A DNA stretch of 64,000 bases from the NCBI GenBank assembly GCA_021735425.1, contig JAIPGZ010000002.1:1-64000 (forward strand), given 5' to 3'. Shown piece after piece: positions 53,092-55,219 of this stretch. The position numbers and the translations under genes are program-made. Every line of letters starts with the position of its first letter. Position 1 is the first letter of the stretch. The notes beneath the pieces were generated by a model. It was given only the letters and a program-made list of their open reading frames with translations, searched no databases and was not told the origin of the DNA. The stretch is from Candidatus Altimarinota bacterium. GTDB taxonomy: Bacteria > Patescibacteriota > Gracilibacteria > JAHISY01.

Positions 53092-53099
53092 AATCATAC

Positions 53100-53139
53100 T
53101 GAAATGGTAGACCTACCGGCAGGCAGATACGCTGGTTTT
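53100..53139 (+). pseudogene. Second broken tRNA-Leu piece with half palindrome
   Basis: TGAAATGGTAGAC (53100-53112, identical to the tRNA-Leu D-arm), then CTACCGGCAGGCAG (53113-53126, 13 of 14 to half of the palindrome), then ATACGCTGGTTTT (12 of 13 to the tRNA anticodon arm). Confidence 0.8.
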
Positions 53140-53162
53140 CAAATGGTAAAATAACGCACGAT

Positions 53163-53246
53163 GCTGGGGTGGTGAAATGGTAGACACGCTGGTTTTAGGA
53201 ACCAGTGCCGTAAGGCGTGGAGGTTCGAGTCCTCTCCCCAGCACCA
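53163..53246 (+). tRNA. tRNA-Leu (anticodon UAG)
   Basis: A complete class II tRNA: acceptor GCTGGGG/CCCCAGC, D-arm with GGTGAAATGGTAGACACGC, anticodon stem CTGGT/ACCAG around TTTAGGA, a long variable arm (GTGCCGTAAGGCGT), T-arm GGTTCGAGTCC, encoded CCA. Source of the fragments at 52781 and 53100. TAAAAT lies just upstream. Confidence 0.95.
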
Positions 53247-53248
53247 AA

Positions 53249-54367
53249 TTATTCACAAGAAAAATTTCCGCAACTTTTTCGACAACAAAACATTTTTTTA
53301 AGCAGAAAAAAGAAAAGCAAAACAACAACGGCTGTCGTCGTAAGAATCACAATCTTCGTCAGTAAAATCGGTGCAAAAACTTTGTAAACAAAACTACCAA
53401 GCACGGCGTAGGCGACGAGCGGACAGACGAGCCCCCATTGCGAGACGTGATATTCACGGAAAAAATGACGGCGAAAATAATCCGCAAGAAGCACGAAGCC
53501 GAAAAAGAGATACCAGGTCTCAAAAGCGAATGCCGTTGTCATTACAATTTTAAAATAATTGCCAAGTTCGGCAGCGTGAAATTTTTCGAGCCAGTGCCCG
53601 AGGCGAAAAGCAGAAATCGCGTAAAGCGTAATGTTTGGGATGACAATCAAAAAACTCGGCAGAAATTGTTTCGCAGGAAGTCCGTCCGCTGCGAAATGCG
53701 ATTTGAAAATCGAAATCGTTTTAACAAAAAGTAGAAAGAGCCCCATCGAACCAGAAATCAGCGAGAGAAAAGCCGCAACATTCGCGAGCACCGCATCAGC
53801 TGCCATCGCCGCAACCCCAGTCCCTGTCACAGTCACCATCCCAAGTGTAAAAGGATGCAGTAACCAACCAAAAGAAATTTTGGCAATATCAAAACTTTTC
53901 GTAAATGAAATTGCGAGTAATTTAACTACGAAGCGCATTGTCAAAATCCATAAAACCACCCAAGCAATGAATCCAGGGAGCATCAGCATTTGCAGATTTT
54001 CGTAAAAAGCCGGAACGAAATAACGAATCGGACCAATCAAAACATTCAAAGTCATCGCGGCAGAAATGAATGGAGCGAGCAGCGCAGAATTTTGGAGTGG
54101 ATTGTCGCGAAAATTTTGGTAATTTTCATCACGCAAAAAGCGGACTAAAGGCGCAATGAGAAAAATCGTGAGTAGTAAATGCAGGGCAATGAAAAGCAAC
54201 ATATTTCCCTCTAAAATCCGGACAAGGAGCCCCCCATCGGTCTGCGAAAAGTTAATGAGCCCAGCAGGATGCGTGAGTGAATAATTGAAAAAAGCGAAGG
54301 TAATAATCGAAATACCTCCAGCACCAAGTGGCGCTAGCCAAGCGAGTGGCGAAAAGTTTTTCTGCAT
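53249..54367 (-). CDS. TDT-family (TehA/SLAC1/Ssu1-like) transporter
   Basis: A 372-residue membrane protein with about ten hydrophobic segments, the TDT layout (LAPFISAAMTLNVLIGPIRY; FGWLLHPFTLGMVTVTGTG). The family includes tellurite/dicarboxylate carriers, plant anion channels and the sulfite exporter Ssu1. The cytoplasmic C-terminus ends in a cysteine cluster (FCCRKSCGNFSCE), possibly sensory or metal/thiol reactive. It follows the CsoR-like gene by 10 nt, so it is probably controlled by it. Confidence 0.75.
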   Translation of the reverse strand: MQKNFSPLAWLAPLGAGGISIITFAFFNYSLTHPAGLINFSQTDGGLLVRILEGNMLLFIALHLLLTIFLIAPLVRFLRDENYQNFRDNPLQNSALLAPFISAAMTLNVLIGPIRYFVPAFYENLQMLMLPGFIAWVVLWILTMRFVVKLLAISFTKSFDIAKISFGWLLHPFTLGMVTVTGTGVAAMAADAVLANVAAFLSLISGSMGLFLLFVKTISIFKSHFAADGLPAKQFLPSFLIVIPNITLYAISAFRLGHWLEKFHAAELGNYFKIVMTTAFAFETWYLFFGFVLLADYFRRHFFREYHVSQWGLVCPLVAYAVLGSFVYKVFAPILLTKIVILTTTAVVVLLFFFLLKKMFCCRKSCGNFSCE

Positions 54368-54377
54368 TGTAATGGGA

Positions 54378-54617
54378 TTAGATTTTAGATAATTCTGTAA
54401 CGATTTTTTCGAATTCCTTTTTCTTTTTGGGCGAATTAAGTGAGCTACACTTCTTTAAATTAGCAATCAGCATTTTGCCGCCAAGTGACCCTAGGGCACT
54501 ACGTACGGCTTTAAGCTGAGTAAGAATCTTCAGACAGTCTTCACCTCGCTCATCCATCTTTTTGATTCCCTCTAGCTGACCAATCGTGTTTTGGATGAGT
54601 TGTTGAATTGTTTTCAT
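54378..54617 (-). CDS. CsoR/CstR-family repressor
   Basis: A 79-residue helical DUF156 repressor (GQLEGIKKM, DCLKILTQLKAVRSALG). Ligand positions are Cys28, Asn53 and Cys57; Cu-sensing CsoR has Cys-His-Cys, so the His is replaced. Two cysteines without the His is what is expected of the persulfide-sensing CstR type (from memory). It heads an operon with the TDT transporter, and a G-tract palindrome covers its promoter. Confidence 0.85.
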   Translation of the reverse strand: MKTIQQLIQNTIGQLEGIKKMDERGEDCLKILTQLKAVRSALGSLGGKMLIANLKKCSSLNSPKKKKEFEKIVTELSKI

Positions 54618-54624
54618 GTCTGAA

Positions 54625-54652
54625 TCTTATTACACCCCCTGGGGGTGTCAAG
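54625..54652 (-). promoter_or_regulatory. Promoter and operator of the csoR-like operon
   Basis: On the minus strand TTGACA (54647-54652), 16 bp, TAAGAT (54625-54630). The spacer is the perfect palindrome ACACCCCCTGGGGGTGT (54633-54649), the G-tract operator form used by CsoR-family repressors, placed to block RNA polymerase. Confidence 0.85.
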
Positions 54653-54748: not shown

Positions 54749-55219
54749 CTAACGAATTCGACGAATCGTGAAACCCATGCGACCAGCAGAAAAAATATTG
54801 TGATTTTTGTGGAGGTACCACAGACCGCCCAGAATCAAAAACAAACCGGCGAAATTCAGTGCCCGCGACAATTCGGAGGCAATCGCTGCCTCGCGAATCT
54901 TCATCCGCACAGCAGTGAATTCATCTGACGCTGAGTGCATTGCATCTCCGTCGGTGGAATAAAAAGCTTTTTGGGTAGTATAATTTGTCGCACCTTCCGA
55001 GAAAAAAGCCGGCGATTCGAAGTGAGCCAAATTGACGATTTGAAATGCCGCCACCATTACGATGATTCCCGCGAAAGCGAAAAGCAGCGGAGAAAATATT
55101 TTTTTGAGATTCAAAAGATACGCCCAAGCTTTGAGATGCGGATTTTGCGCGAGATGCCGCTCCGTGTGTACGACGATGAGATCTGCCGTCGATCGATTGA
55201 ATTTATTTTTGTTTGGCAT
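54749..55219 (-). CDS. Two-helix membrane protein (156 aa)
   Basis: A cytoplasmic basic N-terminus, a membrane helix (about 43-64), an outside domain (65-118) and a second helix (about 123-140), then a basic end. No family recognised. A promoter (TTGATC, 17 bp, TAAAAT; 55241-55269) precedes it, back to back with the rpmA promoter. Confidence 0.55.
   Translation of the reverse strand: MPNKNKFNRSTADLIVVHTERHLAQNPHLKAWAYLLNLKKIFSPLLFAFAGIIVMVAAFQIVNLAHFESPAFFSEGATNYTTQKAFYSTDGDAMHSASDEFTAVRMKIREAAIASELSRALNFAGLFLILGGLWYLHKNHNIFSAGRMGFTIRRIR

What the first reader, a model, noticed from the sequence alone, without database searches (positions are those of the whole stretch)
54378..54652. CstR-like repressor, G-tract operator and TDT transporter: a possible sulfite/persulfide response
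The repressor keeps both cysteines but has Asn at the copper-ligand His position, as expected of the sulfane-sulfur sensing branch. The operon's transporter belongs to the family of the sulfite exporter Ssu1 and ends in a Cys cluster. A perfect ACACCCCCTGGGGGTGT palindrome lies between -35 and -10. A reactive-sulfur defence unit would be new for this group.
Basis: partly seen in the sequence, partly recalled or inferred. Interest (0 to 1): 0.7.

Follow-up and report, generated by a model that had tools for sequence, protein, structure and literature searches.

The report
Thiol-switch repressor controlling selenoprotein-family membrane transporter
A tiny-genome bacterium carries a two-gene switch, a cysteine-based repressor that probably senses reactive sulfur plus a membrane protein whose relatives use selenium, and the same switch with the same DNA site recurs across related uncultured bacteria.

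Summary
Window 54378-54617(-) is a CsoR-family repressor with Cys28 and Cys57, Asn53 in place of the copper-ligand His, and no His at all. A perfect 17-bp palindrome (54632-54648) fills its promoter. The second gene (53249-54367, -) has the SLAC1/TehA fold but is the Cys form of TsoY, a selenoprotein family of unknown function (251.7 bits, cut-off 150), not specifically Ssu1-like. Its invariant Cys315-Pro motif lies on TM9, where channels carry their gate Phe.

The module is conserved: 13 distinct loci pair such a repressor with TsoY. All have the operator (12 exact, 1 with one mismatch); none of 8 TsoY loci without a repressor has it. Neighbours point to thiol/sulfane-sulfur chemistry: thioredoxin, TauE, an FTR-rhodanese fusion.

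The repressors form their own subfamily, leaning towards CstR but not nested in it; placement is weak without the diagnostic columns. Best reading: a reactive-sulfur-responsive thiol-switch operon. Effector and substrate are inferred, not shown. Counter-points: one module repressor has His, the operator core is shared with metal-type CsoRs, and the genome has no rhodanese. New variant of a known kind.

The parts
54378..54617 (-). CsoR/DUF156-family repressor, 79 aa, Cys28/Cys57, Asn53, no His
54632..54648 (.). operator: 17-bp perfect palindrome ACACCCCC-T-GGGGGTGT (+ strand), type-2 G-tract site with a CAC/GTG dyad
54646..54651 (-). -35 hexamer TTGACA, overlapping the operator by 3 bases
54624..54629 (-). 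-10 hexamer TAAGAT, 6 nt before the ATG, so the mRNA is probably leaderless
53249..54367 (-). TsoY-family (Cys form) ten-helix membrane protein, SLAC1/TehA fold, 372 aa
53423..53425 (-). codon of the invariant Cys315 (C-P-x-V motif, TM9), presumed position of Sec in selenoprotein TsoY (UxxV)
53255..53287 (-). C-terminal Cys tail (Cys361, 362, 366, 371)

Best explanation
A self-regulated two-gene thiol-switch operon. SHOWN by sequence: repressor and tsoY are adjacent genes behind one promoter that contains a conserved G-tract operator, and operator and repressor co-occur. INFERRED: in the reduced state the CsoR-like tetramer sits on the operator and blocks RNA polymerase. When sulfane sulfur (per/polysulfide) or a similar sulfur electrophile reacts with Cys28/Cys57 across the subunit interface, as in CstR, it lets go and both genes are expressed. 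TsoY, a SLAC1/TehA-fold protein, then moves or converts a reactive sulfur species. Its pore Cys315, where selenoprotein relatives apparently carry selenocysteine, would be the chemically active residue, and the C-terminal Cys pair would be a resolving or relay site that thioredoxin can reduce. Direction (export or uptake) and exact substrate are open.
For: Module: 13 distinct repressor-TsoY loci (window; 10 of the 18 loci; L088 and L091). Operator at 11 of 11 such promoters in the 19 genomes (10 exact, L014 with one mismatch), against 0 of 8 TsoY genes without an adjacent repressor. In the class survey, 10 of 10 against 0 of 6 (seven of the ten are the same loci as and one is the window; one of the six, L097, runs off its contig). 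Thiol-only sensor: both Cys kept in 13 of 13; Asn at the His position in 9 of 13 (K, D, Q, H in the others); His in 18 of 18 rows of the metal-type group, including eight separate CsoR paralogues in TsoY-bearing genomes. Best PDB relatives are S. pneumoniae CstR. Neighbours: thioredoxin beside TsoY in L011, L015, L019; repressor plus operator plus thioredoxin without TsoY in L125 and L116; TauE in L009; FTR-rhodanese fusion 4 bp upstream of tsoY in L023. C315 invariant in 19 of 19 and in all 23 rows. Fold: SLAC1/TehA, VIA Z 27.6-32.4 for 22 rows, next row 18.4. CstR chemistry and regulons from passages of PMC9918477 and PMC10318464.
Against: No effector or substrate evidence. L091's repressor has His at the Asn position. 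A repressor near a P-type ATPase (Leuconostoc L072, 1.6 kb away with a transposase gene between) carries Asn, so Asn does not prove sulfur sensing. The operator core also precedes His-type CsoRs with metal genes in the same class (L113, L114, L119-L121). The own genome has no rhodanese domain. Thioredoxin adjoins the operon in only 2 of the 11 repressor-TsoY loci examined (window; ten loci). CstR-side placement falls to 76/36 without the three diagnostic columns and was lost. The C315/gate-Phe equivalence rests on motif register, not on a printed residue superposition.
Confidence: 0.55

Rival explanations
1. A general thiol-redox or electrophile switch (oxidant, quinone, HNO, hypohalous acid): the repressor forms a disulfide under oxidation and induces a thioredoxin-linked membrane protein; sulfur is not the specific signal.
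For: Thioredoxin neighbours, rubrerythrin beside TsoY in L022 and, by reading only, rubrerythrin and superoxide-reductase-like genes after TsoY in L011, thioredoxin-reductase-like gene in L128, two-Cys sensor.
Against: TauE in L009 and the FTR-rhodanese fusion in L023 point to sulfur. Characterised relatives with Cys/Asn/Cys are persulfide sensors; YrkD was not induced by H2O2 or GSSG (PMC9918477 passage).
Confidence: 0.2
2. Response to and handling of chalcogen oxyanions or reduced selenium (selenite, tellurite), TsoY being a Se/Te/S transporter.
For: CstR is modified by sulfite, selenite and tellurite (PMC5016687 passage). TehA, same fold, is annotated as tellurite resistance. TsoY is a family that includes selenoproteins.
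Against: The window form has Cys, not Sec. No selenium genes were seen next to TsoY, though none were searched for by family. Neighbours found are sulfur and thiol genes.
Confidence: 0.1
3. A copper or other metal CsoR with an efflux partner.
For: Same family and operator type as Streptomyces CsoR (PMC3902906 passage); the same operator core precedes metal-type CsoRs in this class; L091 keeps the His.
Against: The window repressor has no His at all. Separate His-type CsoRs exist in eight TsoY-bearing genomes. TsoY is not a P-type ATPase or metal exporter family.
Confidence: 0.07
4. TsoY is a plain anion channel for osmotic or pH balance and its Cys residues are structural.
For: SLAC1/TehA fold.
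Against: The presumed gate position carries an invariant Cys (19 of 19) and the family has a selenoprotein branch, which is hard to explain without chemistry; thiol-type regulator.
Confidence: 0.08

Closest known systems
CstR of Staphylococcus/Streptococcus (persulfide-sensing CsoR-family repressor) and YrkD of Bacillus licheniformis
   Same: Two Cys, Asn at the CsoR His position, compact G-tract operator in the promoter; staphylococcal cstA-cstR intergenic region holds ATACCCAATGGGGTAT; top PDB hits.
   Different: Own clade, not nested (AU p 0.0225 with and 0.0575 without diagnostic columns for joining the window clade with CstR). Target is TsoY/thioredoxin instead of rhodanese/PDO/SQR. The fourth residue of the RLxR motif is Asn and the operator dyad is CAC/GTG instead of TAC/GTA.
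TsoY, selenoprotein family NF047643/NF047644 (Haft and Tolstoy 2025, not held; seen only as cited in PMC13188914)
   Same: NF047644 at 251.7 bits over cut-off 150; CPxV motif where the review gives UxxV.
   Different: Cys instead of Sec; 248.8 bits against the seleno_TsoY cut-off of 250; in an operon with a CsoR-family repressor.
SLAC1/TehA/Ssu1 (TDT) channels and transporters
   Same: PF03595, ten-helix fold, Pro-containing TM9.
   Different: Cys315 in place of the gate Phe (by motif register); no significant sequence match to any TDT chain in the PDB; TehA matches TIGR00816, not TsoY.

Membership tests
CsoR/RcnR (DUF156) repressors | PF02583 above curated cut-off | tested here: met
   57.8 against 22.8 bits; three-helix model with CsoR-family PDB entries as top hits, best E 1.2e-3
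CstR | two conserved Cys and no Cu(I)-ligand His (Asn instead) | tested here: met
   Cys28, Cys57, Asn53, no His; across the module Asn in 9 of 13, His in 1
CstR | nests with characterised CstR in a tree | tested here: inconclusive
   CstR side of a 99/97 branch; 91/83 with and 76/36 without diagnostic columns; not recovered; nesting of the window clade with CstR disfavoured, AU p 0.0225/0.0575
CstR | controls rhodanese/PDO/SQR/TauE genes | tested here: not met
   operon holds only TsoY; no rhodanese in the genome; TauE beside one relative, L009
CstR | released from DNA by per/polysulfide | not testable with these tools
   needs purified protein
CsoR (copper) | Cys-His-Cys ligand triad | tested here: not met
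   Cys-Asn-Cys, no His
FrmR | Pro2 with the reactive Cys35 equivalent | tested here: not met
   residue 2 is Lys; importance of Pro2 from a PMC5016687 passage
TsoY family (NF047644) | curated model cut-off 150 bits | tested here: met
   251.7 bits
selenoprotein TsoY (NF047643) | model cut-off 250 bits and in-frame UGA (Sec) | tested here: not met
   248.8 bits; Cys codon TGC, no in-frame stop
TDT/SLAC1 superfamily | PF03595 cut-off and ten-helix fold | tested here: met
   41.4 against 27.9 bits
Ssu1 sulfite exporter | groups with Ssu1 and exports sulfite | not tested
   no Ssu1 sequence was compared

The most novel reading that the evidence does not exclude
TsoY is a covalent-relay membrane protein: a SLAC1/TehA-type pore whose phenylalanine gate has been replaced by a reactive Cys (or Sec in selenoprotein relatives), so that sulfane sulfur crosses or is reduced through a transient persulfide/selenenyl-sulfide at the gate and is handed to a thioredoxin-reducible Cys tail. 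A dedicated CstR-like subfamily, with its own operator dyad, switches it on in Patescibacteria.
Probability: 0.28. Interest if true: 0.85.

Novelty: new variant of a known kind. Interest (0 to 1): 0.6.

Why it matters
It gives a genomic handle on what TsoY, a selenoprotein family of unknown function, may do: its Cys form is under a thiol-switch repressor of the persulfide-sensing type and sits near thioredoxin, TauE and rhodanese-FTR genes. It places a redox-active residue where SLAC1/TehA channels keep their gate. It suggests that bacteria with very small genomes, here without rhodanese, still keep a dedicated inducible reactive-sulfur response. Each step is testable with purified proteins and E. 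coli K-12.

Tried and rejected
Sec forms of TsoY: none found. The Aliarcobacter hit with two pieces proved to be a frameshift, read in three frames apart, with Cys at the motif. High TGA counts in six TsoY genes of the class reflect whole-gene TGA recoding (read as code 25), not Sec; the motif Cys is encoded as Cys there.

Operator as a regulon marker: in the class the core (0 mismatches) is in 36 of 353 genomes and the reversed-pattern control is 0 in all 353. Ten of the 36 are repressor-tsoY genomes. Loci were fetched for 22 of the other 26: 13 hold a CsoR-family ORF and 9 do not. Several of the 13 are metal-type, so the core is not sulfur-specific. G334 (9 sites), G376 (6), G1215 and G1258 have GNC/GAT-centred copies that look like another repeat. 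The second site in the L008 genome lies inside dnaG.

Sequence alignment to TehA gave nothing usable, and profile search of PDB found no TDT entry, so the C315/F262 match rests on the fold (TM9 helix 308-330) plus the W-x-x-x-F/C register and F450-P451 in PMC10645844. Weak TsoY hits in G228, G302, G849, G1140 and G1235 were dropped as below cut-off. In one search eight rows (long branches, short PDB segments, two odd repressors) were dropped before the trees. The group label 'Cu' was mine, by neighbours or annotation, and some of those rows (L027, L028, L034, L039) have no proven copper link.

Papers: PMC13188914, PMC10318464, PMC9918477, PMC5016687, PMC3902906, PMC10645844 passages seen; PMC9405070 and PMC10536192 passages seen and not useful; others only in search listings.

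Full report
WHAT IS THERE. On the minus strand, a 79-aa CsoR/DUF156-family gene (54378-54617) is followed after 10 bp by a 372-aa membrane-protein gene (53249-54367). The promoter is TTGACA-N16-TAAGAT and its spacer is filled by the 17-bp palindrome 54632-54648 (expected 0.03 in shuffled sequence with up to 3 mismatches). The -10 ends 6 nt before the ATG, so the transcript is probably leaderless. The genome (997 kb, 38 contigs, 97.5% complete) holds one TsoY gene, one CsoR-family gene and one exact copy of the operator core. The nearest relative locus, L008/L094, is from a Candidatus Peribacteraceae genome that the genome search places in the same genus.

REPRESSOR. It matches PF02583 with 57.8 bits. 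Its only Cys are 28 and 57, Asn53 stands at the position of the CsoR copper-ligand His, and it has no His. The AlphaFold model is a three-helix protein, pLDDT 93. Foldseek's first five hits are S. pneumoniae CstR, including an N55A mutant entry, although FrmR and CsoR entries have TM-scores as high or higher. Eight separate CsoR-family paralogues in TsoY-bearing genomes all carry His there.

TREES. With 35 rows the TsoY-linked repressors form one clade (99/98) on the CstR side of a 99/97 branch. With 42 rows, TsoY/Trx-linked repressors are one group (91/81) and join CstR against metal-type, FrmR and RcnR rows at 91/83. Without the three diagnostic columns these fall to 73/69 and 76/36. With 50 rows and no diagnostic columns the window clade separated from CstR and drifted towards FrmR/RcnR at 82/84. 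Holding the window clade with classical CstR is disfavoured (AU p 0.0225 and 0.0575); holding it with FrmR/RcnR is not rejected (0.08 and 0.18). I therefore call it a separate subfamily that leans to CstR, not a CstR.

MODULE. A scan of public genomes found 18 TsoY loci; 10 of 18 have a CsoR-family gene next to TsoY. The class survey gave 16 of 353 genomes above cut-off, 10 of 16 with an adjacent repressor, two of them new (L088, L091): 13 distinct modules with the window. In 19 genomes the operator pattern (up to one mismatch) is at 11 of 11 repressor-TsoY promoters and at 0 of 8 TsoY genes without repressor; in the class survey 10 of 10 against 0 of 6 (overlapping set). The pattern was derived from these sites, so the contrast between the two groups is the informative part (1 in 75,582 by counting; related genomes are not independent). 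TsoY is rare and patchy: 2 of 379 genomes in the phylum sample, 2 of 52, 2 of 329 and 1 of 296 above cut-off in three other phyla, and 2 of 5 listed genomes of the genus. Some carriers are Woesearchaeota.

OPERATOR AND READING HEAD. Passages of PMC3902906 describe type-2 CsoR operators with TAC-N9-GTA around G-tracts, and an RLxR motif common in CsoRs. All 10 repressors whose fourth RLxR residue is Asn (9 TsoY-linked including the window, plus L125) have the variant dyad CAC-N9-GTG. Of the 14 others from the genomes searched here that are shown, 12 have TAC/GTA on both sides, L104 has CAC/GTG and L102 is mixed. This may be a specificity switch, but it could be a single event.

TRANSPORTER. NCBIfam calls it TsoY family (251.7 bits, cut-off 150) and it just misses the selenoprotein model (248.8 against 250). 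The review PMC13188914 lists TsoY as a selenoprotein with motif UxxV. In the window the only CxxV is C315-P-L-V, with C315 invariant in 19 of 19 relatives and 23 of 23 rows. I could not examine a Sec form directly. The model (pLDDT 89) matches SLAC1/TehA chains at Z 27.6-32.4 against 18.4 for the next row. C315-P316 lies on TM9, and the register W-x-x-x-F of TehA F262 matches W311-x-x-x-C315. SLAC1's gate residue F450 on TM9 is followed by P451 (PMC10645844 passages). So a redox residue appears to have replaced the gate Phe. Tail Cys are conserved at 362 (16 of 19) and 371 (17 of 19).

NEIGHBOURS. Thioredoxin lies beside TsoY in L011 (by reading), L015 and, after the repressor gene, L019. The repressor with its operator precedes thioredoxin without TsoY in L125 and L116 (by reading). 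TauE lies in L009, an FTR-beta/rhodanese fusion 4 bp upstream of tsoY in L023, rubrerythrin in L022, and DUF4395 plus a thioredoxin-reductase-like gene in L128. Against this, the own genome has no rhodanese (13 of 14 controls have one), and most repressor-TsoY operons have no further gene.

MECHANISM. The best-supported reading is a self-regulated thiol-switch operon for reactive sulfur, by analogy with CstR and YrkD: two Cys crosslinked by sulfane sulfur, induction by elemental sulfur and polysulfide but not by sulfide, sulfite, thiosulfate or H2O2 (PMC9918477 passages). Effector specificity, direction of transport and substrate are inferred. Sulfite, selenite and tellurite also modify CstR (PMC5016687 passage), so they stay open.

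NOVELTY. No paper linking TsoY with a CsoR-family repressor appeared in the searches; the original TsoY paper is not held, so its own neighbourhood remarks were not seen. I rate it a new variant of a known kind.

Noticed in passing
L008, L023, L095: Cys forms of TsoY score above the 250-bit cut-off of the 'selenoprotein TsoY' model (257.2, 283.2, 273), so automatic naming as selenoproteins would be wrong.
   Followed up: yes
L084-L086, L095-L097: TsoY genes with 7-19 in-frame TGA codons in two families of the class: whole-gene TGA recoding (read as code 25), with the motif Cys kept as a Cys codon.
   Followed up: partly
L104 (G1211, same genus): A repressor of the same family with the CAC-type operator stands before an RND-type membrane-fusion-like protein in a genome without TsoY.
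   Followed up: partly
L128 and L109: Repressor plus operator before DUF4395 membrane proteins; in L128 a thioredoxin-reductase-like gene follows.
   Followed up: partly
L105, L112 (G334, G376): Repeated GACACCCCGNCGGGGTGTC-type inverted repeats, 9 and 6 copies per genome; no CsoR-family ORF at the one site fetched from each.
   Followed up: no
window 53163-53249: tRNA-Leu on the + strand ends 3 bp from the end of the convergent tsoY gene; a partial tRNA-like stretch precedes it near 53095-53160.
   Followed up: no
window 54749-55219 (-): 156-aa membrane protein upstream of the operon, no family match over cut-off, with a counterpart at the same place in L008.
   Followed up: no
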